NCBI GenBank assembly: GCA_029851415.1
Contig: CM056742.1
Location: forward strand, 52,926,954-52,990,953
Source: Eretmocerus hayati
Taxonomy: Eukaryota > Arthropoda > Insecta > Hymenoptera > Aphelinidae
Reading direction: 5' to 3'
DNA: 64,000 bases
Shown one piece after another: positions 27,433-50,559 of the stretch. The number at the start of each line of letters is the position of its first letter. The first letter of the stretch is position 1. A program made the translations under genes and the position numbers. The notes beneath the pieces are model-generated. The model was not told where the DNA came from. It made no database searches and was given only the letters and a program-made list of their open reading frames with translations.

Positions 27433-27436
27433 CATC

Positions 27437-27916: not shown

Positions 27917-30747
27917 TGTGACGTCCAGTTATATTTATTGCAAGCTCTAGAAAGGTATAATTTGCATCGGTGTATTGTGGCCAATGGTAATCTTATGGCC
28001 CATACCTTCCCAGTGCTAGCCCTAGTTTTGAGCCACTAACTGAATAGTATGCTCTCGGGATTTAGGGCATGAAGAGAAAGAAAAGGAAATTGTTCAATAA
28101 TGTGAGTGGGTGGATCCTTGTTGGCGATCGGTGGTTCACTCGTATTCGGTATGTCAAGAGCGTATCTGGTGGATGTGCCCTAATGCGCTCGTCTGGCTCG
28201 AGTCTTCCCTAGCTGCGCAGACTAGCTTGCGCGCGGGGCAAGTAGGAGAGACTGTGGCCTAACACGTTACTCTTATACTGCACTGCTCTCGCAATGCTGT
28301 GGGCCCAAAACTCTATATATGTATAGTATATATATATGTATATATTGGATAGTGGGGCTGGCTCTCCCATGGGACTGACCGTGTTTCAATCGATGTTCGG
28401 CTCGGTACTCGGTGTCTATTTCCTGAAGGGCGACTCTTGGGATTTGGAACTACTCTTCAAGACCTCTGCTACTCGCCAAATGCGTTCAAAAACCCTTAAA
28501 TATTCTGTAGGTACGTTGACAAACGTTATTTCGACAAAATGTACCTATGCGATAGGTGATTTTAGTCGCGAGCGAAATTCCTCATAACTCGATGACCATT
28601 GGGTAGAATCGACTCCAGTTTAGCTTGAAATACGCACAAAGGAGTAATCTAAATGGCAAATAGCCGTTGCTGGTCAATTTCGCAATAGTTGTTGAGTTTT
28701 AAACAAAACCTGTGTTAAGTCCAATACGGTAGCGATATGGGGCAAAATGGGTGTTAAATTTGAATATCTTCACTGCAAACACTTGGAATGAGTTTAAACT
28801 TGGCTATTTATCTACTGGTACCTCTGAAGTACCCTAAGAAACCTTTAATAGCCCTCTAAATGAGCTCACTTTGCAATGTAGTTGAAACGAAAGGGAAAAA
28901 TGCACTTTCCGTCGCTCGGGTCGGCTAGCGAAAAATGGATGATTTCACTTTGGCGGATCGAATATTATGTGAATTTACTTTGTAGAAGTTCCAAAAGGTA
29001 GGTAGACTACGTGTCTAAGTACCCCACTTTCTATTATGATGTTGAAATTGAAAATAAAATAGTTAAGGGTGGTTCACGCGCGAAAATTGCAATTACTCGG
29101 ACCAAAAATAGGGAGGTGCGCAAACGTCAATTTCTCGAGATCTAGGTATCAAAATGAAGATCACGATAGCTAGTTTTTGAGCTGGAACACTATTCAAATA
29201 GATTATGCACGCTGATCTATGAATTTAATCGATGTGAGCAAACAATGGGTGAAATTTGGGGTACCTCGAAAATACTCGGGTAGCGCGAGAATTCGACGAT
29301 AAAAGTGATATTTCCCTATCGTACTGGCCTGAAATGATTCTCTTTCAGCTTAATCCCCTTCTTTGAGACTCGACAAACCCTGGTGGAACGAAATCCACGA
29401 AAGAATTGACACGAGGTTTGAGTAACACTGAAAACTTAGGGTGAATTATGCACTCGCCGACCACAATTACACTCGGGAAAATTCCTACTACCCTCACTAT
29501 CTAAAAGGGGTAGAACTGTGGAGTTGCACGGATCGGGTATAGTGCAAATTTAAGATTGATACTTAAAATTACTCACTTGTGGTCATATAGTTGGCTGTGG
29601 AGGAATCCTGTACTGCTGACAGGCACTGGTAAATAATCCACCTTTCTTGGGTTTTCTGTTTATTTCCTTTTGGTTACACTGCACTCTGACAATTTGAAGT
29701 GCCTCTCTCTGATGATGCACAGTTCACTTCCAATATTATATTGATAGTAATTTCACTTGCACTTATTACTTGCTATTGTATCAAGAGCTCGTGAAAACTC
29801 GGAAAAATCGACTGTGTCGAAGTCACTCCAAAACTATACTGAGAAGAAAAGATTCGACATGGGCCCTCTGAAGACCCTCTTTATATATCAGGTGGGCTCG
29901 ATTATTGTCCTCGATACTCGCGTTCTATTTAAATTTTGTTTACTCAAAACGTCAATTCGACCGATCTGCGCACCTAAGAGCAAATGCACTTTTCCGGAGA
30001 AAGAGACCGAGCCATGCATATTTTTGGGCATACTTTCGTATGATCCGAGCACTAGGCAATTAATCATTCTCGTTCTCAAGTGTCATCTTTATGTACTTGA
30101 TGAGTTTGCCTATGCGCCGGGCTATCCGATGTTTATGCTTTATAATACGACGGAGTCTGTGGGCCCGCGCCATTGATTAATTATGCATGCGCACCTTTGT
30201 AAGGAAAGGGCCAGTGACCCGCAGCGCGCCACTCGGCTCTTTCATTCTTGTTTTGTACTGTTGCATCTTTTGCTCAATGTTGAAGTGTGCACCTATCAGC
30301 ATCGAGATGGATTGAGGAATGTAGAGCACACGGGAATTTTGACGAGACGTTGACATTTCAGGTCAAATTCCGTTGTGCAATGCATTCTGGACAAAATCGA
30401 TTATTTTAGCCTGACCTCGTTAGATTCTACTCACATTTCTGTGTTCATGATGATTTTACTTGATTTTACCAAAAATATAATTTTACGATGGATTTTGATG
30501 ATTTTCACCTTTCAAAAAGAAGTTATATTGATTTGACGGAGTTTCCACGAAATGCGATGTTTCCATCCATCATGCGATAAAAATGATGGATGAAAGTTAG
30601 CATTTTCACATGTCATCTTCCCGAGATTCACATCCTTTGATAATGTGCTCCGTGAAATTTACGTTACATTTTACCGTATAACTTTCTATCTATAGCTATC
30701 ATTTATTGTCTTTGAATATATATTTTAAAATTTTCACCGACATTACA
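27917..30747 (-). repeat. 3' LTR of the giant element (2831 bp)
   Basis: Same sequence as 47727-50559 with roughly 2% differences. The end near the internal region is ATTACA, followed by a purine tract on the minus strand. Open frames in it, including a 139-codon one on the plus strand at 29757-30176, are antisense to the element. Confidence 0.85.
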
Positions 30748-30757
30748 CCTCCCCTCT
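30748..30757 (-). promoter_or_regulatory. polypurine tract of the giant element
   Basis: AGAGGGGAGG on the minus strand directly next to the 3' LTR. Confidence 0.7.
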
Positions 30758-31488: not shown

Positions 31489-32199
31489 TTATTTTGCTTC
31501 CGGATTCCTTTTCGCTTTGAGGTCTATGGGGATAGAACATCTGAGGTAGTGCGTTATTCTCTTCCTGCATAGGCTGCATTCGGACAAAATTGCAGCGCAT
31601 CGAGCACATGCTATAAGATGTGAGCATGGTAGGAAAACCACTTCTGATTTGTAATCATAACAGATTTTACATGTGATTGAACTCGCGAGGTCTACATAAG
31701 TACCTTTGGGTTTCGGCGGAGGAGGTTCAAGTACCGTTGTTAGCTCTTGTTTCGCGTTTTCGATGAATTCCTGTCCCTTTTCTGCTTTCACGAACATACA
31801 TTTCGGGAACCACTTGGCGTGTTCGTGCCATGGGCTGTCAGTCATGTTCCATCGATGAATTGTCCCACCGCAATGAAAACAGGTGACTGCATCGCTTCTA
31901 TCGGTGTAGAAAAATCCAGCATTGGCCATGAACTCTTTCGGTTGACAGATATTCGTTGGCCAATTAGTGAATGTCCGTAGTCTATCCTCGTAGCTGAGCA
32001 TATCCCGGTGTATTGGGCGCGTTCTAACTAGCTCACTCTCCTCGATGTCCAGCAAAAGTCTGTTCATCCTCCGCATGTTAGCTTGCATGGTTGAGGGAAA
32101 TTCCATTCCTGTGTTAAAATATAGCTTCAATACTAGCACACACCGTGTGTCAAATGATAGATTGTGCGTTGCATCATTGTCTCTGATCGTTTTGTTCAT
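31489..32199 (-). CDS. iap: inhibitor-of-apoptosis protein with BIR and RING domains
   Basis: 236 residues from ATG at 32199 to TAA at 31489. A single BIR domain lies at about residues 70-138: GFFYTDRSDAVTCFHCGG, with zinc ligands in the spacing C-x2-C-x16-H-x6-C. A C3HC4 RING finger follows at about 180-217 (CKICYDYKSEVVFLPCSHLI, then CARC and CSLC). BIR domains bind caspases or IAP antagonists, and the RING is a ubiquitin-ligase module; viral and insect IAPs with these parts block cell death. It is the last gene of the giant element, starts 16 bp after the preceding stop, and has an acceptor-like CCCTGACCAG five bases before the ATG. The frame is intact. Capture from a host or a DNA virus is inferred. 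Confidence 0.88.
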   Translation of the reverse strand: MNKTIRDNDATHNLSFDTRCVLVLKLYFNTGMEFPSTMQANMRRMNRLLLDIEESELVRTRPIHRDMLSYEDRLRTFTNWPTNICQPKEFMANAGFFYTDRSDAVTCFHCGGTIHRWNMTDSPWHEHAKWFPKCMFVKAEKGQEFIENAKQELTTVLEPPPPKPKGTYVDLASSITCKICYDYKSEVVFLPCSHLIACARCAAILSECSLCRKRITHYLRCSIPIDLKAKRNPEAK

Positions 32200-32215
32200 A
32201 TGTCCTGGTCAGGGT

Positions 32216-32764
32216 TTATTGTCGGTCATATATCGGGTTCGATTGCTCCATTTCTTGACGGAATCTTTCTCGCGGGTTAATCGAAAGGTCTTCGGGGTCA
32301 GCTTGATCACCCGATTCGGAATCCGATCCCTTATCACTCTCTGATATAACTTCAATGTCCGAATCATCACCATTCATCTCTCTCGCTTGAAGGTGGGCAT
32401 TCGCCTCCCGTTGTTGTCTCACATTTATCAAGATAAGGTTTGAAAAATATTGATCTGAGCACATCCCACAACGGATCACAGGCCTTTCGACTAAAATTCT
32501 CGTTCCACAACGCTCACATTCGCAGTAAATCGAATTCCGGGGTACGATCATGTGTACCGTGTCGACTCGGCCCACCGGCTCGGCAATGCTGTAGTGGTCC
32601 CGCCTATAACATTGATCGCATTCCAGTATCCCTGTCCAGTAACTTACATAGTACTGTTCGATCCCTGGGTGTTTGGTGACGCAACTATAGCTCAAAAGGT
32701 CGTGATAGTTTTCTGGGTATTCTTCGGGACGCACGCCATCCCATCGTGGTGCTCTGACGGCCAT
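32216..32764 (-). CDS. Cys-rich protein with acidic tail, function unknown
   Basis: 182 residues if it starts at the ATG at 32764 (MAVRAPRWDGVRPEEYPENY); the context AACATGG is good, and an acceptor-like TCTAATTCACAG ends 9 bp upstream. The frame is also open back to the stop of the preceding glycoprotein gene. It has paired cysteines that could form zinc ribbons (CDQC, CECERC, CGMC) and a Ser/Asp/Glu-rich C-terminus (DDSDIEVISESDKGSDSESG). I do not recognise the family. Its place between the second envelope gene and the IAP suggests an accessory role. Confidence 0.55.
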   Translation of the reverse strand: MAVRAPRWDGVRPEEYPENYHDLLSYSCVTKHPGIEQYYVSYWTGILECDQCYRRDHYSIAEPVGRVDTVHMIVPRNSIYCECERCGTRILVERPVIRCGMCSDQYFSNLILINVRQQREANAHLQAREMNGDDSDIEVISESDKGSDSESGDQADPEDLSINPRERFRQEMEQSNPIYDRQ

Positions 32765-32812
32765 GTTCTTCAACTGTGAATTAGATGATTCGTCAGTTAT
32801 AATTTGTTCCAC

Positions 32813-34870
32813 TTAGCGAGTGAAGTGATACATAGATTCGGTTCTCCCAAGATACGGGTATAGGTGAGGTGGTTTCGGTCTCATTACGATCTCTACATTT
32901 TCGTAAGTAGGATCCTGTTCAGTTTCGTTCTTTCCGTTGGGTGGTGGTTTACGTTGATGTCCGCGATTATTTGAGTCGTATTCTTGTTTTGCTGGTTCAT
33001 CGTTGGGCATTTTAGCCTTTTTCGTTCTATCAATTTTTTCCTCCTTGTAGTCTCTTCCCAGATGTATCAGAAGTTGTGTTATTGAGTTCCAAATTGCTCC
33101 TAGGACATGAATAGACCATCCGTATATACTGTACAGAGCGTAACTGTGAATGATCGTGTCAACACAGAGTTTAACAATTCTCAGAAATATGAAAAGGCCC
33201 ATACATCCTGCGCTGATGGATCCGAACGTCATGAATCGCATCCACATTTTTTCCCACGTTGTTGCCGCTAGTTGTTCCAAAGCACTTGCATCTAGGAGTC
33301 CCATCCCGGAAAGACTTCCTCCCAAGGTTTCTAGTCCTGCCACTCCTAGAGCCACGGAATTCAGAACCGAACCTCTTTCTAATGGGAACATTATGCGGTC
33401 TCGTAGTCTGCTTACATCAGCAGGCGAATACAATCCGCTGGTTGCTAGTTGTGCTGGGCTCATGTACTCGAAGGTTGGCGCTGTTTGAGGTTTCAAAGTT
33501 TCCGGGTCCCTTCCATAGAATATTTTCGGTGAAAATTGTGCCCAAGTGTTGTTGATGTAGTACATTGTGGGCATAAGGTGATTGCAAGGTACTTTCGTTC
33601 CCGTCCGGATGAGAATTCTTGTTCTAGGTGATAAGAAGTATTCCTCCGGCCCACGCCGTACTGGCAATTGTTGATAACAGTCTTCGGTGGGTCGCAGTGT
33701 TACAACTGTCTTAAGGCACTTTACGAGGTGTACAACCTCTCCTGCTAGAACTGCCATGTACCCAGGTGAGTCCTTAAGGCGGTATGCGAACTCATCCGGA
33801 GCTTGTGTCGCTATTGACAATGCGTTGTTTAGTACTTTCGTTTCAAGTTCACATTTATGTCGCAACAAATTGTAATACAAATTTGATATTTGTTTCCGGA
33901 TGTGTTTTTCAACATACAACAATTTTGAATTTATATATGCAAACATATCTATATTTTCTACAGCAACTTCTTTTGTTTTGCGAAAAGGCGGATTGAGTTG
34001 GTTTTCCATAACAAACAGTCTGGGGTGTTCGGTCCTGATGAACCGATATCCGCATATTTGCTTTTCTCCAGAGGTTGATAAGGCAAAGGTTACATCCTGG
34101 GATCCTAAAATATAGGTTACTTTGTGTCTGCTATTCATTTCCACCGTCTTGTTCACGTACCCGTCATAGAGGCTTGTGTAGCGGTTGAGTTCACAGAAGT
34201 CTAATGGTTCTAGGCTCCAAAAAGCGTAGCCTTGTGTCTGGTCGAAGCATTTTTCATCAGTGAATTTGCAAGTTGCTCCTGTCACCATATGGATTCTGTT
34301 AGCTTCTATGTCAACCGTAGCGTTATACGCATTGATGACGATCTCTGCGTGTCCAGCTACGACAGCTTTATCCCAGCTACCGTATTTGTCGCTGTATTCC
34401 GCTTCTTGGCATTTCCCTACGATTGAGGCATCACCTGCCAGGGATATCGGCTTACTTATGAATTCATTGAAAGGTATAACTCCAAGTAACGTTTTGCCAA
34501 TTTGGATGCTCCTTGTGGCATGGAGCTGTTCACATTCTTCCTTGTTCAGTTCTTTGTAATAGGTTAATTCTCCATTTTTTATCCTAGAGGCCCATGAGAG
34601 CGTGCCACAATGCGTGACTAATCTGAATATTTTGATTGCACACGTTATTACGTTAACTGTGGAGAACTCGTTGAGTTGTAAAACGTTAACATGAACCGTA
34701 GAAATGTTCAACTTCGGTGGTTCTATTTCACATTCGTCAACCTTTACAAGTGATATAGTTGTTAAGTTTGTAAGTTCTTCTCCACAATCGTAACCGACAA
34801 GATGTGTCTGAGTCAGGCTTGTCCAACATCCAAACAGGAAAAGAAAAATCACCATGTTGCGATCCTCCAT
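32813..34870 (-). CDS. second envelope glycoprotein, chuvirid-type resemblance
   Basis: About 685 residues from the ATG at 34870 (MEDRNMVIFLF), chosen because it gives a clean signal peptide (MVIFLFLFGCWTSLTQTH) and lies one base after an acceptor-like TTTCATTCCCACATCTAG; an ATG at 34903 is in frame. The ectodomain is Cys-rich, has several N-glycosylation sites and begins LVGYDCGEELTNLTTISLVK, a layout I associate with chuvirid and retroelement class III-like glycoproteins. Near the C-terminus comes a small-residue stretch (LGVAGLETLGGSLSG), a membrane segment (GCMGLFIFLRIVKLCVDTII) and a tail with Pro/Tyr motifs. It is intact and unrelated to the F-type env upstream. The family call needs a profile search. 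Confidence 0.65.
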   Translation of the reverse strand: MEDRNMVIFLFLFGCWTSLTQTHLVGYDCGEELTNLTTISLVKVDECEIEPPKLNISTVHVNVLQLNEFSTVNVITCAIKIFRLVTHCGTLSWASRIKNGELTYYKELNKEECEQLHATRSIQIGKTLLGVIPFNEFISKPISLAGDASIVGKCQEAEYSDKYGSWDKAVVAGHAEIVINAYNATVDIEANRIHMVTGATCKFTDEKCFDQTQGYAFWSLEPLDFCELNRYTSLYDGYVNKTVEMNSRHKVTYILGSQDVTFALSTSGEKQICGYRFIRTEHPRLFVMENQLNPPFRKTKEVAVENIDMFAYINSKLLYVEKHIRKQISNLYYNLLRHKCELETKVLNNALSIATQAPDEFAYRLKDSPGYMAVLAGEVVHLVKCLKTVVTLRPTEDCYQQLPVRRGPEEYFLSPRTRILIRTGTKVPCNHLMPTMYYINNTWAQFSPKIFYGRDPETLKPQTAPTFEYMSPAQLATSGLYSPADVSRLRDRIMFPLERGSVLNSVALGVAGLETLGGSLSGMGLLDASALEQLAATTWEKMWMRFMTFGSISAGCMGLFIFLRIVKLCVDTIIHSYALYSIYGWSIHVLGAIWNSITQLLIHLGRDYKEEKIDRTKKAKMPNDEPAKQEYDSNNRGHQRKPPPNGKNETEQDPTYENVEIVMRPKPPHLYPYLGRTESMYHFTR

Positions 34871-34871
34871 T

Positions 34872-36923
34872 CTAGATGTGGGAATGAAATTTTGTTTGAG
34901 CATTCTGTTCTTGACGTAGTGAATTGTAATTATAATCGTTTACTTGTCTGGAAGATTGGCCATGAATGGGCATGGTATGCCGGCTGTCACGGTCGCTTCT
35001 AGGAATATGGAGGATTCTGGGTTCATCGTACCTCACTTCTGTTTCAAATGGAGCATCCATTCGTGATAAAGTGTCGAAATTTTCGTGAGTTGATCTTTTA
35101 GCAGGTTTACTGTACGAAGGCTCTTCGCTCAAAGTTGCTCTACGGTTATCGTAATAGAATTGGTAGAATATTTTGTCCGTGGGGACGTGAACTTCGGCTC
35201 TATTGAGATATTGAAGAGGTCCTGTTTGACAACTACCATTCCTCAGTAAATTTAGTCAAGCTTGTCTTATCCAATAAGCCGTTGTTATAATGCTCAAAAT
35301 TAAACCAGTTGCTATGAGAATGAAAACAAAGTTTGTTAAGATCAGGTTAAACAATTTTTGGTAGCTTTCGACATCTTCAACCTCATTTTTGATTTGATTT
35401 TCTATTTCCCAAAGACTCTCGAATGAATTATTGTGTATCTCTCGGTCACGAAGCTTTTTATGGATTCGAGATTGGATCTCTCTAGGTAATAGCTTTTTGA
35501 TATTTAGTGAAACATCCGGTATAATGATTTTATTGTTATTTTGAGGACCCACTCGAGCAACGAGACGGTATCTGTTAGAAACGGCTCTACAGTTGGGGCT
35601 AAGTTTTAGGAGTCCCGTCCCATTCAATATTATTTGAGATGTCCTGTTTCGACCCTTACACGATAGAATTAAGCCTTCGATATCTGGCATTGAATATATC
35701 CAGTCATATTCTGAGTCTATTTTGACAAACTGAGGGGTATTATTCGAACTAACTCAAACATCGCAATGATGGTATGCGTCTTCGTTTGGTGTTTTTAATG
35801 AAGTATGTTCACAAGAAGTATTCGTTCCTAGGGTGGATAAAGGTTGTTCCCAAATACAGCAGATGTATTTTGTGAGCTTTTTGCATTTGTCAAATTGTTT
35901 GCTATCCATACCGTACTCCGCACCATTTGCATTTATCCCTATAAATTCCTTGCGGGGTCTTACAAAGGTTGATAATTGTTTGTGATTCACGAATTGTATG
36001 GAAGTCATTGACTGTATGCGATAAAATTCAAAGTCAATGGGTGCTACTAACGGAATTTCTAGTTCAAGAATGTAATGTAATCCGACATTCCCTGCACAAA
36101 GTTTCATAAGATCCGTTAGGCGGTCTATCTGTGTTACATTCGCGGTGGTTGGGAATTCATATGGTCCGGACAGATGGTTGATCTGTTCTATTACATCAGT
36201 CATTTGATCATCGGAGATCAAGCTTGGATGAAGACGGTTATTTTTGACGGTGAATATAATGTCCAGGACTCTGTCGCAAATGCTATTAAACAGGGTTATC
36301 CCTTCTTCCATCCTGTAGAACAAGCTATCAACCGTCGTCGTGAAACTTCCACACTTCTCAATCTCTACGGAGTCATTCAATAAAATTCGGAAATTGTTAA
36401 ACAGTTCGGCTGTTTTATTGTGAAGTACCGTGACTCTATCTATTAGTTTTCCGAGATGCGAAATAACTATTAACGTTCGATTTTGTTCCAAACGCAGTGA
36501 ATTTTCCTCAATTTTGTACATGTGCCTTATTTTCTGCATGTAAAATTTTTTGATATCGATAGGCATTGATTCCATTATTCTAGTGAAACTGTCATACACA
36601 TTCTTCCTAAACACCCGATTTTGTTCCATTTTGTAAGTTATATCGGCAATTTTACTCTCTATCCGGGTGCACTGTTCGTGGTTTCCGGAACACTCTTCTT
36701 GGATCTTTTTGAAAATATCCAAATACATCCCATAACCTTGCTCTATAGGTTTCATATTGATGACAATGGTGAGTTTCCAATGGCTTTCGAAAAATCTCAA
36801 ATTTCGTAATTGCTCGTAATAAATTCCGGGGTTCCGATATATTTTAGTCAATTTGTAGCCATGGTCTGTGTGGTTTCCGACTGCACAACCGACGATGAGT
36901 AATAGGATATTCAAGAGCTTCAT
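34872..36923 (-). pseudogene. env: baculovirus-F/errantivirus-type envelope protein, two in-frame stops
   Basis: A frame of 684 codons from ATG at 36923 to TAG at 34872, interrupted only by TGA at 35754-35756 and at 35256-35258. It has a signal peptide (MKLLNILLLIVGCAVG), an N-terminal segment typical of F-like Env (IYRNPGIYYEQLRNLRFF), coiled-coil-like heptads, a Cys-rich C-terminal ectodomain, one membrane span at about residues 510-532 (NFVFILIATGLILSIITTAY) and a long cytoplasmic tail. I see no obvious furin site. Such proteins mediate membrane fusion for entry. An acceptor-like TTTCTCAACTTACAG ends 11 bp upstream of the ATG, as expected for a spliced env mRNA. Confidence 0.75.
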
Positions 36924-36965
36924 CCTTAATCTGTCTGTAAGTTGAGAAATTTTACTTTAAGTACT

Positions 36966-38387
36966 TCATTCGTTATCTCGAAGAAAATAAGCTATCCTTT
37001 CGATTACGGGGATGGGGAAAACATTCCGGAAAGTTTGAATGAGTTTCTTTTCGCAGGTCTCATGGAATTCTCGAAGTTTTAGTGAGCTTACTAGTTTACT
37101 CGCGAGAATTTTATAGAAATGGGGAAATTCAACCTTAATGTCTATGGCTCCTATTTTGCGTATGATTCTTTTATCTCTCATGATATTCGCGGCAAATTCT
37201 TCTGGTTTCTCGAAAATGTCTAGCAACGCGCGGTTTTGGCCAAACTTAAAGTCTCTCATTTTTTCTACTTCTTCGTGAAATTGAACAAACTGGAGAGTTG
37301 ATTCGCCCTCTGAAAATATTAAGTCTCTGTCAACGAGAGATACATGTCCTCCCGTCGTTCCTAAACGGACCCTTTCTCTGATTATCCAGTAACTCTCGGG
37401 GACAAGCACAGGACATAAATAGAAAAAGAGAATTATGTATCCCGGGTTAGGATAAAGTCTAGCACATCTTGCTAAGAGCGTTTTGATTTACAATTCCTGT
37501 CTGCGGTTGTATGCTATAAGTAAGGCTGATAAATTGTCATTACGAGTCTCGTCTACTCTTGCCCCCTTTCCTATCAAATATTTCGTGAAATGATGACTTT
37601 GATATTCTACGGCTCCCATGAGGGGAGTCTCTCCTTCAAGGTTCCTAGCGTTAACATTTGCTCCCTGTTCGATGAGGAAAAAGGGTAATTTCCTTTTGAA
37701 ACTCCTGATCGCAAGGTGCAATGGTGAGTCTCGCACTCTATCTAATGCATTGACCTGCAACTCTAGGTCTAGCAGTACACCAGCTACGGCAGGATCATTT
37801 TCTCGAGAGGAATAACATAGATAATGCAATGCATTCCGTTCCATGTAGTCTGTAGCCTCGGGGTCAGCCCCGTTTTCAAGTAATATTCGAATAATGTCGA
37901 TGTTTGCACTACTAGCTGCTTCTAAAAATGGCGTGGTGCCCCAGTCGTCAGAGGCGTTTACTTCAGCTCCTCTCTCAATTAAAGACTTAACCATGTCGTA
38001 ACAATCGCTCTTACATGCCACGTGCAACATGGTGCCTCCCGTTGCACCCTGTGCATTCACGTTTACCCCTTTGTTGAGCAACAATTCCATAATGTCTGTC
38101 ATTTCTTCATGCATTAGGCACCAGCAAAGGTATACAAAATTTTGCTCGCTTATGTCCCCGATTGTATCTACTAGTAGTTTACACATTGCTCGATCCCGAT
38201 TCCGAACAGCTAGTCCTGATAACGTTTTAAAATTCTTCCTGTTCAAGGCTGTCGGATCTTGTTGAAGAATATTTTTGAAGGTGTCTAATTTCGAATGCCG
38301 TACCGCCTTCCGAATTGAACAATCGCCATTACGACCGCGGTCAAGTTGAAGGATGCTATTCCAATTTTCGTTGCGGTTCCCTGCCAT
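36966..38387 (-). pseudogene. ankyrin-repeat protein 2 with PRANC/F-box-like tail, one in-frame stop
   Basis: 474 codons from ATG at 38387 (MAGNRNENWNS) to TGA at 36966, with one TAA at 37488-37490. Several ankyrin repeats are clear (GGTMLHVACKSDCYDMVKSL, GTTPFLEAASSANIDIIRIL, DSPLHLAIRSF, GETPLMGAVEYQ). The C-terminal 130 residues end in a helix with FPIPVIERIAYFL, similar in layout to the PRANC/F-box-like tail of poxviral and some parasitoid-wasp ankyrin proteins, which link targets to ubiquitin ligases. An acceptor-like ATGTCTCTTACAG lies 6 bp before the ATG. It is paralogous in layout to the gene at 38659-40176. Confidence 0.7.
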
Positions 38388-40509: not shown

Positions 40510-43500
40510 CTAAGTATTTTCATCCTCGCTTATATATGAAATTCTCAATCTATTAACGTGAACTATTTTAGTTTTATTCCTATCTCTAACTAATTGTATT
40601 TTTGCGTTATCTTTCTTGATCATGTCTATAACTATATAGGGGCCTTCGTATTGGTCTCCAAATTTATGGATTTTCCCACCTTTAAGGAGCCACACTGAGT
40701 CTCCTATCTGAAAATTACGTGGATTTACCCGCTTATCAAAGTAGTATTTCATACGAAATTTGCTATCGATAAGTCTTTCTCTAGCTAATCCCTGAATTTC
40801 GTGTAATCTAGTGGTAAGATCGATCAAATAATTGTCATAAGTTGGCAATCTATCCTCCGGCTCTAAGGGGTCACTAGATGGGGTCCTAGCTAGCCTTCCA
40901 TGTACTAATTCGAAGGGGGTGTGGGCCAGAGATTCGTGAAAACTCGTATTGTATGAATACGATGCAAGATCCAACCAGCTATCCCACTCCTCGTCCTTAC
41001 TAATGAATGATTTCAAGTATTCTCCGAGCACATGGTGTGATCTCTCGATCGATCCGTTAGCCTATGGGTGAAGCGCCGTTGTCCGGTACTGCTGAATTCG
41101 AAACTTCTTCGCTACTCTCTTCATAAGGTTGCTGAGGAACTTCGTACCTTGGTCTGTGCGTACTGCAACTAGTGCTCCGAAAGTGCAGATGAACCTCTTT
41201 ATGAAGCCATCTGCTACTGACTTTGCTGTGGCATCAGGAAGAGCTATAGCCAATGAATATTTAGTCAGAAGACATTGGATCGTCAAGATATTGTCATGGC
41301 CGTTCGCTGTCCTCGGGAACGGTCCAACGATATCCATAGCGACTTTCTCGAACGCTGTCGTGGGTGTATCGGTAATCACCATCGGATTCTTGGTCTTAAC
41401 TCGAACTAGTTTCTTAAGCTGGCATGATAGACATCGTCTTATAAATTGTTGCACATCATGTTTCATATTTTCCCAGTTGAATTCGTGCCGAATGCGTTTA
41501 TAAGTTTTGTTGACACCTTTATGTCCCCCAGCTGCAGAGCAGTGGATTGTCTCGATGATTTTACTCCGTTCCTCTACCTTAGGATATTTGACAATGCCTT
41601 TGCAAATTATGATCTTTACATCAACTCCTTTCAAAATGTTTCTCAATTTAATCATGACATCGCTCCACAGGATATTTTCTACCCGAATGCTCTCTGCTAT
41701 ACTGATGGATCTGAGCTGTTCTTTCTCTATTACATTTTTGAAGTTCTTGAATCCCATGGTGATATTTGAATCAATAACCGTCAAACCTTCTTTGTCGGTT
41801 CCTCGAATCGGTACAATAAGATGTAGCTTGTTGCTGTGGCGTACCATAGTGATCTCGCCAACTTCCAGATGGGAAAATTTTGGCAGCTCTCCCCTATCTT
41901 TTAGATCCCTCGATCCGTTGTCGCAGGGTTCTCCGGCAGTACTGACAAAATACATGTAATTATCCTTCCTCATGAATAATTTTTCTCTACTCTCCACAAA
42001 TATTTTTCCAACTACTCTCTTCTCTCTTGGATGAGTATCCGTCCGTTCATGCGAATCGTCAACGGAGTTCTGTTCTGCTGGCAACTCTTGCATCTGGTTC
42101 GGTTCCATTTCCGGAGGGTCATGATCACCCGTATCCACTGTTCCAAAATTATCGTTATCGAATCCTGGACCTTCACCAGGTGTGTCTAGACTACTGATCG
42201 CTTGCTCTATGATTCCTGGATGTAAATCCTCTTCCGTTGAAGGCATATTCCCTGTTTCAGCCTCCCCTCTATGACTCGGCTTATCCCGTTTGGGGGCCTT
42301 GGGTCGTTTTTCGTTGTAATTTGGTCGCTCTAATTTTCCTGCTCGCGTTCGGGTTTCAATGGGAAAAATAGGGTTGGGGTCAGGCTCCACGGGGTTCCTA
42401 GAAAGCGCATCAGCGTTAACGTTGAGTTTTCCAGCTTTATATATGATTGAGTACTGGAACTCACTCATCTTAATCCTCCATCTTGTCACTCGAGAGTTGG
42501 AATCCTTGGTGTTTTGGAACCACACCAATGGTTTGTGGTCGGTCACTATTGTAAATTGTCTGCCGATCAGGTGATGTCTCCAATGGCGTACGCAATACAC
42601 CATCGCAAGAGCCTCGAGCTCATGAATTGGATATTTCATTTCAGCTGAGTTTAACAGGCGTGATGTGTACGCAATAGGCCTGTCATTATCTAATTCACCT
42701 TGGGACAATATACCTCCAATAGCCCAGAGGCTCGAGTCAGTGGTCACGTAGAAATGCTTAGAAAAATCAGGGTGAATCAACACAGGATGCTCACACAGCT
42801 TCTCTTTAAGTATTTCAAAAGCGGAATTTTCATCGTCACCCCATATGAAGGGTACATCTTGTTTGAGTAAATTACTCAGCGGTTTGGGAATCCTCGAGAA
42901 ACCCTGAATGAATCGTCTGTAGTATCCAGCTAGTCCAAGAAACTGGCGAATATTTTTGACATTCTTCGGGACGGGAAATTTCCGAACGCATTCGACCTTA
43001 CCGGGGTCAGGTCTGACTCCTTCCTTGCTAATCAAGTGTCCTAGATACGTCACCTCTTCTTTGAAGAATACACACTTATCTGGTTGGAGTTTGAGCTCAT
43101 GTTTCTCGCAACGGTCGAGAAATTTAGCACACTTCTCGTCGTGTTCGTTTTTGGTTTTCGCAAAGATACAAACATCGTCGATGTGGGCGTGAAGGATAGA
43201 TCCTTGTAAATCAATTAGTATGTTATCTATTGCTTTCTGAAAAGTGGAGAGGGCAGACACTAAGCCAAACGGTAGCCGTTTGAACTGGAATTTTCCATAC
43301 CTGGCTAAAAATGAGTTCTTCGCTTGATCTTCTTCGTGAACCTCTATCTGGCGAAATCCTGAAGCCAAGTCAAATACAGAGAAGTATCGTGCTCCATGCA
43401 GCTGATCCAGTATCTCCTGGATGTTGGGTATAGGGTAGGTAAACGCTATAGTCTTTTTATCAAGCTCCCTGAAGTCAATAACCATCCTGTATCTCTTATT

Positions 43501-45318
43501 TCCGTGGCTGTCATCCTTTTTTGGAACAATCCAGACGGGGTTGCTGTAATTAGATTCCGATGGAACTATCACGCCATTATCCAACAGCTCGTTCACTTGT
43601 CTATCCATCTCTTCTCTAAACGCAGGTGGTAATCTATACTGACGAGCTTGCACGGGTATGTCATCGACAGTTGGAATTCTATGTTTAATTATCGACGTGC
43701 ATGTAAGCTTCTCGCCAGGCAGATGGAAGCATTTAGCGTATCGTGTGATTAGAGACTCGACTCGACTCCGATCCTCAGGATCCAGATGTTCTAGTCTGAG
43801 CAGCTTCATGACTCTCTCGGGTCTCGGTATTTCGGTTTCAGTCACGTTGAAAATGAAATTCTTCGGGGGTAGGTCTCCACAAAATCTTAACTCGTAATCC
43901 CTGAATTTCTGCAAATTCCAAATATGGTTCAAGGGTCGTTTTGGCATCTGTGTCCTCACTGCGGATGGACTCCAGACCTTTGTACCCGCTCGATTATTCT
44001 CTGCCGCTTTGAGATGATTGGACGTCATGCCCATCTCCATTGAACTCTCCGTCTGCTCAGCATTACTAATTAATAAAGTTTCTCTCTCATCTGTACTAGC
44101 ACCTACTGGTTCGCTTCCCCCAATCTTTTTGTAATCGTGCACAACTTCAACTTGAATGTCTTCGAATAATAGTTCCCCTATGTTGTCCTCACATACTCCG
44201 CAAAGTCCTTCAAAACTAGTGATTTCTCCGTCCCTCTCCAATGCGAGTGGTTCATTGCATCCACTGGAAATATTAGCTACATAACACGTTTCCAATTCCT
44301 CACTACAGCTGACTCCATTTTCGATTTGTAAGTCTCCCTCATTCTGGCTGGGTTGCAACGAGGCAGATGATATATCAATATCTGATTCGTCCAAATCGCC
44401 TTGTGCCGTGTCTTCTAGTTCATCTCCAAAAATTTGCCTCCCAATATCCTCCAAGGTTTCTTCTTCCTCATAAAAATTATCAGCTTCAACAATCAAATCC
44501 GCAGGTAAGTCATCGCTGGCGGAAATCATGGCATTAATTTCGTCCAAAAGTTCATCATACTCCGAAAATCTTCTGGGATTATTGCTCTCGCGTTCTTCTA
44601 GGTCATTGTCAGGAATTCTCATCGGATTTGGTATATTTTCATCTGATGTTTGTCTCATGCTATCTAGACCACATCCCGTTTCACTGTTTTCTGAGGGAAA
44701 GTCTGTCCCTCTAGCCTGTGATTCAATGTCTTCGTCCTCACTCTGTGCGTCAGGCGTGTTATTTCCTAGGGTCATAACTTCATCTGAGTGATCAAATTCA
44801 GGTGGTTGGTCTTGAGCCATCGGGTCGAATTCAAAGAATATCACCCGGTCGTCTATTTCGATAGAATTCTCGGAGTAATTAATTTTCGCATTGGTCTGTC
44901 TGAAAAAGTCACTTCCTAATATACCGGCTTGCTTGATGGGGAAGCTATCATTCACAACACAGAATTCTACAGGATAATCACCAAAATCTAACTCATTTTT
45001 GCTCAATGTTTTTATGCTTTCCAACGTAATCCCTCTCAGATATGTGGGGTTCTCCGTGCAGACCACTGCTCGAGGAGAGAGGTAGCTCTCCTTAATCAAA
45101 TTTGGACCAGCTCCGGTATCCAACATGAATGTAAGCGGCCCGCTGGAATCGGTCATATTCAAGTTAATTGTGGGTGCTCGATTCCTCTGGCTCAGATGTA
45201 CAGTCCTGGTAATTACACGCTCGTTTCCAGGGGAGTTGAGGTACTCGGGCGAGGAGCTGAGGTAGTCTCCCTGCTCACGCCCGCCTGAGGGAGACCAGTA
45301 CCGTTTCCCGGATTGATT
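40510..45318 (-). pseudogene. pol: Ty3/gypsy-type Pol polyprotein, one in-frame stop
   Basis: Open in the -1 frame relative to gag from 45318, ending at TAG 40510. Residues counted from 45162: protease with LDTGAGPNLI (about 14-23); an acidic linker of about 350 residues; RT at about 500-690 (YRMVIDFREL, FSVFDLASGFRQIEV, LPFGLVSALSTFQ, catalytic HIDDVCIF in place of the usual YxDD); RNase H at about 805-920 (TTDSSLWAIGGIL, IHELEALAMVYC, VTDHKPLVWF); integrase zinc domain (HCSAAGGHKG, CLSCQ) and DDE core (MDIVGPF, RTDQGTKF, E after the stop). TAG at 41062-41064 falls between the second Asp and the Glu. The remaining integrase C-terminus has a GPY-like module (QYEGPYIVIDM). Confidence 0.88.
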
Positions 45319-47627
45319 CTACCGGTGCGAATATCATTCTGGAATTTCAGGCAGTCTCGTTTGTAGTGTCCTATTCTCCTGCAGTACTAACAAGTTATTG
45401 GGCTGTTTCCGGTCCTCTGACCATCATTGTTGGAAGAATGGTCCCGTAAGCGACTGACATTGTTATTATTGTTATTGGTGTAAGTATTCTGGTTTGCCCT
45501 GTTGTCTGTCTGGCTAAGATTCCTATAGCCTGGATAATTATTGTTGATTCCTCGGCTGCTTTCGTGGTTATTTCGTAAGTTGGTGAAAGGGGACCGTGAA
45601 GTATTGGAACTGCCATTTCTGAAGTCCTGATAGCCTCTGCTCGTTCCAGGGTTGCTGTCTCTGTACATTTGATAGTTGAGGTTCGGACGTAATCCGTAGC
45701 TATCACTTCTCGGAGGATCTTGTGTTTGCCTGAACGAATTTGAATTGTTACGGAATCCATAATTAGGGAACCTGGGTCCCGAATTCATGAAATTTCGGTC
45801 CAATCTTTCGGCACGACTATTGCATGTTTCGAGGAATAATTCAATACAGTTCATGAGGAAGTGTCCGGGCTTTTGACAAAATTGGCAAACGACTGCTGTA
45901 TCTTTATCTGGGTTCTCGACAAGATTCACTCTTCTAGTCTCTCGCGATAATTTGGGTCTTGCATCGTCCCTCTTGGAACCTTCATCAGCATCGCTACAAG
46001 CAAATTCTCGTTCAATTTCAAAGGCTGAGTTCTGGGCTTCCTCAAAATCAGATGGTGTTCCGATTCTCGCTCGAATTTCCCATCTCAATCCCCGGAGGAA
46101 GAATTTGAGACAGTCCGCACTAGGTTCTTCGGCAAATTGGGTGGCATCCTTGACTCGTTTTTCTCGAATTCCTGATTTCAGAATCTCTTTTTCGATCTCG
46201 CGTAATCGGTTGAGGTATATGATGACTGCTTCGTTGGGTTTCTGTTTTATTTTGGCTAGATCACCGCTCAGTTCGTGGTAGGTTTTGGGTGAGCCGAAAA
46301 CGTTCTCAAAAAATTCGCTAATTCCATCGACTGTCTTGAAAATGCGCCCATTGACACACCTCAAAGCATCACCATACAACTTGATGCGGATAAGCTTGGT
46401 GAGTTCATCTTCCAAATATGCTGGTAAAATTTCTCTAGCATCTCGGCAGCCATCCAAAAATTTATTCAATCCAATATTTTGTCCATTAAATCGGGGGATC
46501 AAATCAAGAGCGTCCTTGATTGATATGCCCCTCACTTCAGGTTTTCCGGATCTATTGAAAGTCATCTTGGCGAAGTCACTCGAGTCAGATAAATCAGAAT
46601 AGCTCAGCTCTGTTTTAAACTGGTACTTGGATGGTTCTGAGAAGTTTTCAACCTTTGGCTCGAATTTGAGGCTACCTAACCCTGCAGAGTAAAATTCCTA
46701 TGATTCGTCTTCGCTCTTGATCAGGCTTCCCAGGGGTTTGCCTGATTGGGTTCTGTTTCTGTTTCTCAAAAAGGACTCTGGAACAACTCCTTTGTGTTCC
46801 TCAGAAAATACGGGTTCAGATCGTACATTTCGAATCTTGTTTTTAGCAAACTCGAATAAATCGTAGTAATTGTAACCCTCGTTCCGGAGATTTGTTAGTT
46901 CTTTGATGTTCTCTTGGTCCTCAAAATACTCTGTGATTCTCTCTTGTTTGAGGTTTTCGTTCTCTAAAAGGTGAGATATTGTCTTCGCCAGCAATTGTGG
47001 TTGGTTTTGTTCGCCGATGGGGCTCAAACTTGGTTGTAGGACCGTCGGATCAGAAGATTTGACCTTATTCAACGGGGTACTTGTTAACCCAATGTCCTCG
47101 GCCCTTGCCGATTCTGTGTGCTTTATCTCAATCTGTTTATCTTCAGAACTCGCTTTATCACTCGGTCTAGGTGGAAAGTCGAATTTAGATGCTCTGATAA
47201 TATTTTGACGGACTGGATTAAGTTGGATTGGTTCAATTATGGTGGGTAGTTCTTCCGAAATACTCGGTGAGGCAGGGGTAGTACACTTCCTGTCCCTCCA
47301 GGTTCCAAAAATTAATTCCCCCGAATCACGTCGAATTGGCTTGCGAGGCTGCGGACAGTTGCGACCTATGAATTTTGCGTCCAGATGATGAGAGTCCAAA
47401 GTTTTATTGATCTCGTTCTCGATGCCTTCCAGCTCAGTTGCAATTTGTGCAATTCTCTGTGGGTGGCTGCCTATGCCAATAGCTTCTCTATATTCCTAGG
47501 ATTTGTTCAAAAACTGGTTCAAAAGCGTATCGTTCACATCAGTTGCTGCCAACTGAGTCAGTTTTTGAGAAATCGGGAGCTCGGAAGTAGTCTTCTTTGC
47601 ACTCTCCGAGTCAATCTGATCCAACAT
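45213..47627 (-). pseudogene. gag: Gag polyprotein with two CCHC knuckles, three in-frame stops
   Basis: One frame of 804 codons from ATG at 47627 (MLDQIDSESAKK) to TAA at 45213, interrupted by TAG at 47496-47498, 46698-46700 and 45387-45389 with no frame change. The middle (LIPRFNGQNIGLNKFLDGCR, then LPAYLEDELTKLIRIKLYGD) looks like a Ty3/gypsy capsid. The first zinc knuckle is CQFCQKPGHFLMNC. A second follows near 45390-45350, and the third TAG occupies its second position. A Gly/Asn/Arg-rich linker joins the knuckles. Gag forms the particle and packages RNA. Its end overlaps pol by about 100 bp at the frameshift signal. Confidence 0.82.
45265..45309 (-). promoter_or_regulatory. -1 ribosomal frameshift signal (gag-pol)
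   Basis: Slippery heptamer GGGAAAC at 45303-45309, in phase with gag as G GGA AAC. A 7-base spacer is followed by a perfect 8-bp stem (GTCTCCCT at 45288-45295, AGGGAGAC at 45265-45272). The loop contains GGGCG, which can pair with CGCCC just downstream (about 45246-45250), allowing an H-type pseudoknot. A -1 shift here moves from gag to the open pol frame. Confidence 0.75.
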
Positions 47628-47687
47628 TTTCAGACTCGACTGGTGAAATTCCAAATCTGAACATTTTCCCAAATCTTTTCTTCACTT

Positions 47688-47705
47688 TTCCCGGCCGATG
47701 CACCA
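47688..47705 (-). promoter_or_regulatory. primer binding site, tRNA-Gly type
   Basis: On the minus strand TGGTGCATCGGCCGGGAA is complementary to the 3' end (with CCA) expected for animal tRNA-Gly. It lies 21 bp from the 5' LTR end, farther than the usual 0-5 bp. Confidence 0.7.
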
Positions 47706-47726
47706 ATAAGAGTATACAACTTGACC

Positions 47727-50559
47727 TGTGACGTCCAGTTATATTTATTGTAAACTCTAGAAAGGTATAATTTGCATCGGTGTATTGTGGCCGATGGTAA
47801 TCTTATGGCCCATACCTCCCCAGTGCTAGCCCTAGTTTTGAGCCACTAACTGAATAGTATGCTCTCGGGATTTAGGGCATGAAGAGAAAGAAAAGGGAAT
47901 TGTTCAATAATATGAGTGGGTGGTTCCTTGTTGGCGATCGGTGGTTCACTCGTATTCGGTATGTCAAGAGCGTATCTGGTGGATGTGCCCTAATGCGCTC
48001 GTCTGGCTCGAGTCTTCCCTAGCTGCGCAGACTAGCTTGCGCGCGGGGCAAGTAGGAGAGACTGTGGCCTAACACGTCACTCTTATACTGCACTGCTCTC
48101 GCAATGCTGTGGGCCCAAAACTCTATATATGTATAGTATATATATATATGTATATATTGGATAGTGGGGCTGGCTCTCCTATGGGACTGACCGTGTTTCA
48201 ATGGATGTTCGGCTCGGTACTCGGTGTCTATTTCCTAAAGGGCGACTCTTGGGATTTGGAACTACTCTTCAAGACCTCTGCTATTCGCCAAATGCGTTCA
48301 AAAACCCTTAAATATTCTGTAGGTACGTTGACAAACGTTATTTCGACAAAATGTACCTATGCGATAGGTGATTTTAGTCGCGAGCGAAATTCGTCATAAC
48401 TCGATGACCATTGGGTAGAATCGACTCCAGTTTAGCTTGAAATACGCACAAAGGAGTAATCTAAATGGCAAATAGCCGTTGCTGGTCAATTTCGCAATAG
48501 TTGTTGAGTTTTAAACAAAACCTGTGTTAAGTCCAATAAGGTAGCGATATGGGGCAAAATGGGTGTTAAATTTGAATATCTTCACTGCAAACACTTGGAA
48601 TGAGTTTAAACTTGGCTATTTATCTACTGGTACCTCTGAAGTACTCTAAGGAACCTTTAATAGCCCTCTAAATGAGCTCACTTTGCAATGTAGTTGAAAC
48701 GAAAGGGAAAAATGCACTTTCCGTCGCTCGGGTCGGCTAGCGAAAAATGGATGATTTTACTTTGGCGGATCGAATATTATGTGAATTTACTTTGTAGGAG
48801 TTCCAAAAGGTAGGTAGACTACGAGTCTAAGTACCCCACACTCTATTATGATGTTAAAATTGAAAATAAAATAGTTAAGGGTGGTTCACGCGCGAAAATT
48901 GCAATTACTCGGACGAAAAATAGGGAGGTGCGCAAACGTCAATTTCTCGAGATCTAGGTATCAAAATGAAGCTCACAATAGTTAGTTCTTGAGCTGTAAC
49001 ACTATTCAAATAGATTATGCACGCTGATCCATGAATTTAATCGACGTGAGCAAACCATGGGTGAAATTTGGGGTACCTCGAAAATACTCGGGTAGCGCGA
49101 GAATTCGACGATAAAAGTGATATTTCCCTATTGTACTGGCCTGAAATGATTCTTTTTTAGCTTAATCCCCTTCTTTGAGACTCGAAAAACCCTGGTGAAA
49201 CGAAATCCACGAAAGAATTGACACGAGGTTTGAGTAACACTGAAAACTTGGGGTGAATTATGCACTCGCCGACCACAATTACACTCGGGAAAATTCCTAC
49301 TATCCTCACCATCTAAAAGGGGTAGAACTGTGGAGTTGCACGGATCGGGTATAGTGCAAATTTAGGATTGATACTTAAAATTACTCACTTGTGGTTATAT
49401 AGTTGGCTGTGGAGGAATCCTGTACTGCTGACAGGCACTGGTAGATAATCCACCTTTCTTTGGTTTTCTGTTTATTTCCTTTTGGTTACACTGCACTCTG
49501 ACAATTTGAAGTGCCTCTCTCTGATGATGCACAGTTCTTTTCCAATATTATATTGATAGTAATTTCACTTGCACTTATTACTTGCTTTTGTATCAAGAGC
49601 TCGTGAAAACTCGGAAAAATCGACTGTGTCGAAGTCACTCCAAAACTATACTGAGAAGAAAAGATTCGACATGGGCCCTCTGAAGGCCCTCTTTATATAT
49701 CAGGTGGGCTCGATGATTGTCCTCGATACTCGCGTTCTATTTAAATTTTGTTCACTCAAAACGTCAACTCGACCGATCTGCGCACATAAGAGCAAATGCA
49801 CTTTTCCGGAGAAAGAGACCGAGCCATGCATATTTTTGGGCATACTTTCGTATGATCCGAGCACTAGGCAATTAATCATTCTCGTTCTCAAGTGTCATCT
49901 TTATGTACTTGATGAGTTTGCCTATGCGCCGGGCTATCCGATGTTTATGCTTTATAATACGACGGAGTCTGTGGGCCCGCGCCATTGATTAATCATGCAT
50001 GCGCACCTGTGTAAGGAAAGGGCCAGCGACCCGCAGCGCGCCACTCGGCTCTTTCATTCTTGTTTTGTACTGTTGCATCTTTTGCTCAATGTTAAAGTGT
50101 GCACCTATCAGCATCGAGATGGATTGAGGAATGTAGAGCACACGGGAATTTTGACGAGACGTTGACATTTCAGGTCAAATTTCGTTGTGCAATGCATTCT
50201 GGACGAAATCGCTTATTTTAGCCTGACCTCGATAGATTCTACTCACATTTCTGTGTTCATCATGATTTTACTTGAATTTACCAAAAATATAATTTTACGA
50301 TGGATTTTGATGATTTTCACCTTTCAAAAAGAAGTTATATTGATTTGACGGAGTTTCCACGAAATGCGATGTTTCCATCCATCATCCGATTAAAAAAATG
50401 GATGAAAGTTAGCATTTTCACATGTCATCTTCCCAAGATTCACATCCTTCGATAATGTGCTCCGTGAAATTTACGTTACATTTTACCGTATAACTTTCTA
50501 TCTATAGCTATCATTTATTTTCTTTGAATATATATTTTAAAATTTTTACCGACATTACA
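47727..50559 (-). repeat. 5' LTR of the giant element (2833 bp)
   Basis: On the minus strand it starts TGTAATGTCGG and ends with AATAAA 17 bp before its CGTCACA terminus, a possible poly(A) signal. A TATATA-rich stretch at 48120-48165 could contribute a promoter. No supported coding frame. Confidence 0.85.

What the first reader, a model, noticed from the sequence alone, without database searches (positions are those of the whole stretch)
27917..50559. A 22.6-kb LTR retroelement carrying a virus-like gene set
The sequence shows LTRs, primer site, polypurine tract, gag and pol around six further reading frames on the same strand: two ankyrin proteins, two unrelated envelope proteins, a Cys-rich acidic protein and an IAP. 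Errantiviruses have gag, pol and env in about 7-9 kb; I know of none with this cargo. The combination of entry, anti-apoptosis and ankyrin/F-box-like functions is inferred to be a retroelement evolving toward a large-virus lifestyle.
Basis: partly seen in the sequence, partly recalled or inferred. Interest (0 to 1): 0.95.

Follow-up and report, generated by a model that had tools for sequence, protein, structure and literature searches.

The report
Giant wasp retrovirus with virus-like cargo
A parasitoid wasp genome carries a family of unusually large retrovirus-like elements that travel with two unrelated cell-entry genes, an anti-death gene and other accessory genes, and comparison of copies shows that this gene set is old and largely kept by selection rather than a one-off accident.

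Summary
Window 27917-50559 (minus strand) is a 22,643-bp Ty3/Gypsy-like element in the 692-Mb genome of the chalcid wasp Eretmocerus hayati: 2.83-kb LTRs (97.5% identical), primer site, polypurine tract, gag, pol, two ankyrin genes, a baculovirus-F-type envelope, a Monjiviricetes (chuvirus-type) envelope, a Cys-rich protein and a BIR-RING IAP. In this copy gag, pol, both ankyrin genes and the F envelope carry in-frame stops.

The cargo is not a nested one-off. In 15 of 15 loci examined, F envelope, second envelope and Cys-rich gene lie in the same order; IAP follows in 14 of 14 held far enough. Four subfamilies keep the set, with synonymous sites saturated between A, B and C/C2. Integrase, envelope, F, Cys and IAP trees agree, dN/dS is mostly low, and one copy has identical LTRs over 2,961 bp and a 4-bp target duplication. 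Seven short Gypsy families here have the second envelope directly after pol.

Planarian Burro elements already combine BIR, ankyrin and envelope domains, so the kind is not wholly new. Separate genes, two fusogen classes and deep conservation in an insect appear new in the searches made. Function is inferred.

The parts
47727..50559 (-). 5' LTR (2,833 bp)
   Evidence: 97.5% identical to 27917-30747; TG..CA
47688..47705 (-). primer-binding site, 18-mer, 21 nt inside the LTR edge; looks like the 3' end of tRNA-Gly (recalled, not tested)
   Evidence: same exact 18-mer in B2, C and C2 copies; exact in 4 of 7 stretches looked at, absent in exact form from one A copy whose LTR-gag junction was held
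45387..47495 (-). gag, interrupted in this copy (265- and 436-codon open stretches; CCHC knuckle in the second)
   Evidence: homologous frames follow the primer site in B2, C and C2 copies
40510..45318 (-). pol: protease (weak), RT, RNase H, integrase; one in-frame stop within integrase
   Evidence: Pfam, open frames
38659..40188 (-). ankyrin gene A, one in-frame stop
   Evidence: Pfam Ank_2 7.4e-22 for the first half; single frame of 504-507 aa in A and B copies
36966..38387 (-). ankyrin gene B, one in-frame stop (299 aa then 173 codons); ankyrin array plus C-terminal helical domain
   Evidence: Pfam Ank_2 1.6e-32; AlphaFold model of the homologue in L009, mean pLDDT 86
35256..36923 (-). envelope 1, baculovirus-F type, one in-frame stop
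   Evidence: Baculo_F 1.6e-17 and 0.0018 for the two pieces; Baculo_F 3e-30 and 4e-29 in a B and a C copy
32813..34903 (-). envelope 2, Monjiviricetes/chuvirus-type fusion glycoprotein, 696 aa, open
   Evidence: PF24664 1.1e-209 over residues 19-652
32216..32764 (-). Cys-rich acidic protein, 182 aa: invariant C49,C52,H57,H71,C83,C86,C99,C102 and DSDIE motif (SIM-like)
   Evidence: alignment of 6 sequences from four subfamilies; no Pfam family above its cut-off
31489..32199 (-). IAP: one BIR and a C-terminal RING, 236 aa, open
   Evidence: Pfam, PDB sequence matches to BIR domains
30748..30757 (-). polypurine tract AGAGGGGAGG next to the 3' LTR
27917..30747 (-). 3' LTR (2,831 bp)

Best explanation
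This is a defective copy of an LTR retrovirus-like lineage of the Ty3/Gypsy kind, 22-25 kb long, living in a parasitoid wasp genome. Shown: the lineage has gag-pol, then two to three ankyrin genes, a class-I-type (baculovirus F) envelope, a Monjiviricetes-type envelope, a Cys-rich protein, in the C and C2 copies one more CxxC..CxxC protein, and an IAP; these genes were together before subfamilies A, B and C/C2 split, and F, envelope 2, Cys and IAP have mostly evolved under purifying selection; some copies inserted very recently. Inferred: an LTR-driven genomic RNA of about 20 kb is packaged by Gag and reverse transcribed from a tRNA primer; envelope proteins made from spliced or internally started mRNAs let particles enter other cells (for example germ cells); IAP keeps the producing cell alive, the ankyrin proteins act as decoys or adaptors for host immune or ubiquitin pathways, and the Cys-rich protein, through its conserved SIM-like motif, engages SUMOylated host factors. 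The extra genes are a host-takeover module, comparable in content to those of large DNA viruses, on a retroviral replication engine.
For: Same order at 15 of 15 loci for F envelope, envelope 2 and Cys-rich gene, IAP in 14 of 14 held far enough, ankyrin B in 13 of 14, ankyrin A in 12 of 14. Genome-wide, 34 of 36 scored giant-type envelope-2 loci have the Cys-rich gene just downstream on the same strand (30 within 170 bp, the other 4 within 1.2 kb), 0 of 28 scored short-type ones. Integrase precedes the cargo in the same copy in 6 copies covering all four subfamilies (window, L009, L011, L041+L014, L042+L019, L043+L020). Trees of integrase piece, envelope 2, F, Cys and IAP all split A,B from C,C2; giants are one side of a branch against seven short families, 100/99 and 100/100. 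Synonymous sites are saturated in the A-B, A-C and B-C2 pairs tested while F, envelope 2, Cys and IAP keep 26-78% amino-acid identity; for C versus C2, dN/dS is 0.03 (envelope 2), 0.11 (F N piece), 0.08 (IAP) at dS 2.3-3.0. Recent movement: LTRs identical over 2,961 bp with TSD CTGT in a C copy; TSD TCAC in a C2 copy. Coding density of the cargo 94-95% in the three copies measured.
Against: No expression, particle or infection data. The window copy is broken in five genes and lacks a perfect TSD. One examined copy (L010) has no ankyrin gene and no integrase match in the 4 kb held upstream of F. Some near-identical pairs have dN/dS 0.6-1.0, as decaying copies would, and dS for the C-C2 pair is so high that the ratios are rough. 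The AlphaFold model of the Cys-rich protein is poor (pLDDT 42), so its zinc sites and SIM are read from sequence only. The ankyrin-B model matches ankyrin arrays of all kinds, so no target is implied. One IAP/X block has been swapped between elements, so not every gene is always inherited together.
Confidence: 0.8

Rival explanations
1. The cargo is a one-off nested insertion or a chimera of unrelated repeats between two LTRs.
For: The window copy lacks a perfect TSD, and LTR elements have traditionally been taken to be about 10 kb (PMC6431247, passages).
Against: Same order at 15 of 15 loci on four contigs (C1-C4) and in four subfamilies; two other copies with LTR pairs measure 25,013 and 25,139 bp and have perfect TSDs.
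Confidence: 0.02
2. The extra genes are passengers without benefit to the element: an ancient transduction kept by chance, with env genes decaying.
For: Five genes are broken in the window copy; some recent pairs have high dN/dS.
Against: Open frames in other copies and amino-acid conservation across saturated synonymous divergence in F, envelope 2, Cys and IAP; invariant Cys/His and DSDIE positions.
Confidence: 0.07
3. A domesticated viral gene cluster of the wasp (as in polydnavirus-bearing wasps), spread as host segmental duplications.
For: Parasitoid wasps are known to domesticate viruses, and IAP- and ankyrin-like genes are typical of such systems (recalled).
Against: Copies are dispersed, have LTRs and primer site and, in 2 of 3 examined, perfect 4-bp TSDs; many copies contain stops.
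Confidence: 0.05
4. A genome-resident Gypsy element that no longer leaves the animal; the envelopes only help soma-to-germline transfer within one animal, as for Drosophila errantiviruses, and the other genes counter host silencing rather than death or immunity.
For: Seven short Gypsy families in the same genome carry the same type of envelope, so the envelope belongs to ordinary resident elements; no relative of envelope 2 or of the Cys-rich protein was found in viral contigs.
Against: It does not by itself explain two unrelated fusogens plus an IAP. It is compatible with the main explanation in most other respects.
Confidence: 0.4

Closest known systems
Burro giant Gypsy-like elements of planarians (PMC6431247, passages)
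   Same: Internal region up to 25 kb, Gypsy-type pol, BIR and ankyrin motifs, an envelope region with hits to arthropod and fish mononegavirus fusion glycoproteins
   Different: Burro domains lie inside one ~4,900-aa polyprotein with env between gag and pol; here they are separate genes after pol, with two envelopes of different classes and a Cys-rich SIM-like protein. Sequence kinship was not tested.
Insect errantiviruses (Metaviridae)
   Same: Gypsy gag-pol, F-type envelope after pol, LTRs; 4-bp TSD (recalled as typical)
   Different: 22-25 kb against about 7-9 kb (size from the finding and recall), six to eight genes after pol instead of one, second class of envelope
LTR elements with captured Jingchuvirales glycoproteins (BEL/Pao 'Anakin'; PMC10084718, abstract, Results and Discussion)
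   Same: Monjiviricetes-type glycoprotein as envelope of an LTR element
   Different: That paper reports no clear capture by Gypsy; here Gypsy elements carry it directly after pol (seven short families) or after F (giants). A 2026 paper (PMC13172572, passages) already mentions type III fusion glycoproteins in mosquito gypsy elements.
Avipoxvirus ankyrin/PRANC proteins
   Same: Long ankyrin array plus C-terminal helical part; several of the best Foldseek matches in the viral library
   Different: TMq about 0.3-0.7 with rmsd of about 8 A or more for the listed avipox matches, no Pfam PRANC hit; similarity may be the ankyrin solenoid alone

Membership tests
Metaviridae (Ty3/Gypsy LTR retroelement) | LTR pair, PBS, PPT flanking gag-pol | tested here: met
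Metaviridae (Ty3/Gypsy LTR retroelement) | pol order PR-RT-RH-IN | tested here: met
   RT, RH, IN by Pfam; protease only weak (RVP E 0.053) plus a DTGA motif read in the translation
Metaviridae (Ty3/Gypsy LTR retroelement) | RT phylogeny within Gypsy against outside references | not tested
Errantivirus | F-type envelope downstream of pol | tested here: met
   Baculo_F 1.6e-17 here, 3e-30 and 4e-29 in two other copies
Errantivirus | 4-bp target-site duplication | tested here: inconclusive
   perfect in 2 of 3 copies examined; imperfect in the window copy
Errantivirus | compact gag-pol-env genome below 10 kb | tested here: not met
   22,643 bp; relatives 25,013 and 25,139 bp
Burro | BIR, ankyrin and env domains fused in a gag-pol polyprotein | tested here: not met
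   separate frames
Burro | sequence kinship of pol | not tested
   no Burro sequence was fetched
Viral IAP (BIR + RING E3) | BIR CX2CX16HX6C and C3HC4 RING | tested here: met
   Pfam BIR and RING; motifs read in the translation
Viral IAP (BIR + RING E3) | blocks apoptosis | not testable with these tools
   needs a cell assay
Poxvirus-like ANK-PRANC/F-box protein | PRANC or F-box domain at the C terminus | tested here: not met
   no Pfam hit with the limit at E 10, though HMMER's filters drop most matches above 0.1

The most novel reading that the evidence does not exclude
A distinct lineage of large, still transmissible animal retroviruses has assembled and kept a large-DNA-virus-style gene set (two unrelated fusogens for two cell types or hosts, an IAP, immune-adaptor ankyrins and a SUMO-directed zinc protein), perhaps passing between wasp soma, wasp germline and the parasitised whitefly.
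Probability: 0.25. Interest if true: 0.95.

Novelty: new variant of a known kind. Interest (0 to 1): 0.82.

Why it matters
Length limits of LTR elements have traditionally been put near 10 kb (PMC6431247, passages). A lineage that has carried six to eight genes after pol since before its subfamilies diverged to synonymous saturation, and still inserts 25-kb copies, shows that the limit can be broken for long periods and says which genes are worth carrying. Two fusogen classes in one element make the question 'what does a second envelope buy?' directly testable. It also gives Gypsy elements with a Jingchuvirales-type envelope in Hymenoptera, for which a 2023 survey found no clear evidence (PMC10084718).

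Tried and rejected
Nested insertion: rejected by 14 further loci. Host segmental duplication: rejected by LTRs, TSDs and dispersal. Empty site from the palindromic repeat at the right flank: the left flank shares only an 11-nt word with the expected continuation, left open. Fold of the Cys-rich protein: model too poor to use, so it was not sent to a fold search. Ankyrin-B fold searches return ankyrin arrays in general; a poxvirus-PRANC likeness of the C terminus is by eye and is not claimed. IAP homologue search gave 2 proteins among 76 candidates; no origin inferred. Viral contigs: no relative of the Cys-rich alignment (4 pattern matches, none confirmed) or of envelope 2. Host IAP comparison and the tRNA-Gly check could not be made because the genome search was busy.
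Full report
WHAT IS THERE. The window lies at C2:52926954-52990953 of a 692,130,109-base assembly. The 5 of 5 database proteins found with the Cys-rich gene are from Eretmocerus hayati, on contigs of the same lengths, and the published assembly is 692.1 Mb (PMC10482854, passages), so the host is this whitefly parasitoid. The finding's coordinates are exact: two direct repeats of 2.83 kb, 97.5% identical, enclose 17 kb. All element genes are on the minus strand. Order from the 5' LTR: primer site, gag, pol, ankyrin A, ankyrin B, F-type envelope, Monjiviricetes-type envelope, Cys-rich protein, IAP, polypurine tract, 3' LTR. LTR divergence (69 mismatches in 2,831 sites, K2P 0.025) suggests 2-4 million years at the two rates tried (rates recalled). 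This copy is defective: gag, pol, ankyrin A, ankyrin B and the F envelope are cut by in-frame stops; envelope 2, the Cys-rich gene and IAP are open. In other copies the corresponding gag, ankyrin and F frames are found open; pol was not held whole in any other copy.

NOT A ONE-OFF. A search of the genome with envelope 2 gave 66 matches, 64 of 398 candidates being scored. By identity they fall into A (90-100%), B (78-80%), C/C2 (56-71%) and short families (37-43%); two rows were dropped as fragments of loci already counted, leaving 36 giant-type and 28 short-type loci. I examined 15 giant loci: the window, L008 and L009-L021. F envelope, envelope 2 and Cys-rich gene stand in this order in 15 of 15; IAP follows in 14 of 14 where the held stretch is long enough (L008 is not); ankyrin B is present in 13 of 14 and ankyrin A in 12 of 14. 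L010 has no ankyrin and no integrase match in the 4 kb held upstream of F; L021 has no ankyrin A match; in C and C2 the match to ankyrin A is weak (20-23%) and may reflect ankyrin repeats only. The Cys-rich gene alone gives 76 matches at 64 places; 34 of these 64 lie just downstream of a scored giant-type envelope, 0 next to a scored short-type one, and 34 of 36 giant-type envelopes have it. The 30 Cys places without a scored envelope include fragments, weak matches and loci whose envelope may not have been scored. Integrase precedes the cargo in the same copy in six copies across all four subfamilies (window, L009, L011, L041+L014, L042+L019, L043+L020). Gag frames follow the primer site in B2, C and C2 copies.

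ELEMENT BOUNDARIES ELSEWHERE. Of the window and six further copies in which I looked for LTR pairs, three give full pairs (window; C, identical over 2,961 bp; C2, 3,098 and 3,075 bp, differing in tandem repeats inside the LTR), one gives 2,219 bp at 99.9% running off both fetched stretches (B2), two give 350-414 bp pieces (A copies) and one gives none (B1). Lengths are 22,643, 25,013 and 25,139 bp. The C and C2 copies have perfect 4-bp duplications, CTGT and TCAC; the window copy has TAAT/GAAT. The 18-mer primer site is exact in 4 of 7 stretches looked at and nowhere else in the 340,764 bases held; one A copy whose LTR-gag junction was held lacks the exact word. It lies 21-26 nt inside the LTR edge, further than usual (recalled), in the window, C and C2 copies. 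Its identity as tRNA-Gly is recalled and unchecked.

AGE AND SELECTION. In the A-B and A-C pairs synonymous sites are saturated, yet amino-acid identity is 78% and 67% for envelope 2, 53% and 31% for the F N piece (58% and 26% for the C piece), 54% and 38% for the Cys-rich protein, 52% and 49% for IAP. For C against C2, where dS is 2.3-3.0, dN/dS is 0.03 for envelope 2, 0.11 for the F N piece and 0.08 for IAP; these ratios are rough at such dS, and Cys and the F C piece are saturated for this pair too. Within subfamilies the ratio ranges from 0 to 1.0, the high values being pairs with few changes or decaying copies. Pairs for the ankyrin genes can mix paralogues in C/C2 and are not used. The trees of the C-terminal integrase piece (11 rows) and of envelope 2 (19 rows) both separate giants from seven short families (100/99 and 100/100) and both give ((A,B),(C,C2)), the A-B join in the integrase tree at 83/83; the program warned of long branches in the envelope tree. 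F, Cys and IAP trees (8 rows each, 8 of 14 copies used) give the same split; ankyrin B agrees for AB (91/94), with one C2 row that is a paralogue. So the cargo was on board before the giants diversified, and a copy with identical LTRs still carries it.

MOSAICISM. L015/L019 and L016/L017 are 99-100% identical up to the end of the Cys-rich gene and then fall to 50-75% through gene X and IAP. One block was therefore exchanged with a diverged relative, as template switching between co-packaged RNAs would do (inference). C and C2 copies hold gene X (132-192 aa, CxxC..CxxC, EFDL near the C terminus except in a truncated copy) between Cys and IAP; A and B copies lack it at that place.

WHAT THE CARGO MAY DO. 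IAP: one BIR and a C-terminal RING, zinc ligands present (Pfam), nearest solved relatives are BIR domains of NAIP and cIAP; a caspase- or IAP-antagonist-binding E3 ligase is the natural reading. Ankyrin B: confident model of the L009 homologue, pLDDT 86, ankyrin array plus C-terminal helical domain; best viral fold matches include avipox ankyrin proteins, some PRANC-annotated, but solved ankyrin arrays match as well and Pfam finds no PRANC or F-box. Cys-rich protein: invariant C/H pattern and invariant DSDIE followed by hydrophobic residues, a SIM-like motif (SIM assignment recalled). One speculative use would be interference with SUMO-dependent piRNA silencing. Envelopes: in the two copies measured both keep a C-terminal hydrophobic segment; F and Monjiviricetes glycoproteins belong to different fusogen classes (recalled). 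Cargo genes are packed at 94-95% coding with gaps of -62 to 469 nt in three copies, so splicing or internal starts are needed; none was shown.

SHORT RELATIVES. In 7 of 7 short-family loci (L022-L028) the matched part of envelope 2 starts 89-216 nt after the matched part of integrase; downstream of envelope only a few hundred bases were held, so cargo there is not excluded except that no Cys-rich match lies within 3 kb of the 28 scored short envelopes. This is the plain gag-pol-env plan. The giants plausibly arose from it by insertion of ankyrin and F genes between pol and env and of Cys, X and IAP after it; direction is inferred.

LITERATURE. Burro (PMC6431247, passages) is the nearest described thing and lowers the novelty. 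PMC10084718 (abstract, Results, Discussion) found Jingchuvirales glycoproteins near Gypsy fragments in Hymenoptera but no clear Gypsy capture. PMC13172572 (passages) mentions type III glycoproteins in mosquito gypsy elements and cites an unread 2025 work on metazoan envelope-carrying gypsy elements. PMC13116730 (passages) reports a recent Gypsy burst in E. hayati; the words ankyrin, envelope and inhibitor of apoptosis do not occur in its main text. PMC12440569 was seen as outline with abstract only. Search (0 papers; 20 of 512 listed; 25 of 121; 2; 20 of 22; 15 of 27) showed no listed title or abstract start that describes such an insect element; four further searches failed. The claim of novelty is limited to that.

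VERDICT. Real, coherent, old and recently mobile; a new variant of a known kind. Functions and transmissibility are inference.

Noticed in passing
window 59892-64000: 26-bp tandem satellite running to the window end, with the unit orientation flipping at about 60713.
   Followed up: no
window 20785-21635 and 26584-27433: 851-bp direct repeats, 99.1% identical, flank 5 kb with a 735-aa minus-strand frame (22536-24743) that matches no Pfam family at E up to 0.01; looks like a second, small LTR element beside the giant one.
   Followed up: partly
window 50560-51486 and 55112-55554: Long palindromic repeat (454-nt arms, 93%) abutting the 5' LTR, with a tRNA-Ser (GGA) call inside it, and another copy 4 kb away.
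   Followed up: partly
window 861-2675 (-) and 16474-17349 (+): Two further reverse-transcriptase fragments (RVT_1), the second amid diverged direct repeats at 8-18.7 kb.
   Followed up: no
L015, L016, L018-L021, about 8.7-9.3 kb in coding orientation: Extra gene X between Cys-rich gene and IAP in C and C2 copies: CxxC..CxxC and EFDL near the C terminus; 28-36% identical between types.
   Followed up: partly
L015/L019 versus L016/L017: Block swap of X and IAP in otherwise nearly identical copies.
   Followed up: yes
G000 C2:4603515, C3:25100313, C3:42888730, C4:11056834, C4:60190204, C3:106535508: Weak Cys-rich matches (24-26% over about 90 residues) at six places, maybe a further, more distant family carrying this gene.
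   Followed up: no
P0001, P0002, P0005: E. hayati gene models join the tail of envelope 2 to the Cys-rich frame; may reflect splicing or annotation error.
   Followed up: no
L010 (G000:C4:76894828-76904827): A-type copy without ankyrin or integrase matches in the 4 kb upstream of F; a deletion, insertion or shortened variant.
   Followed up: no
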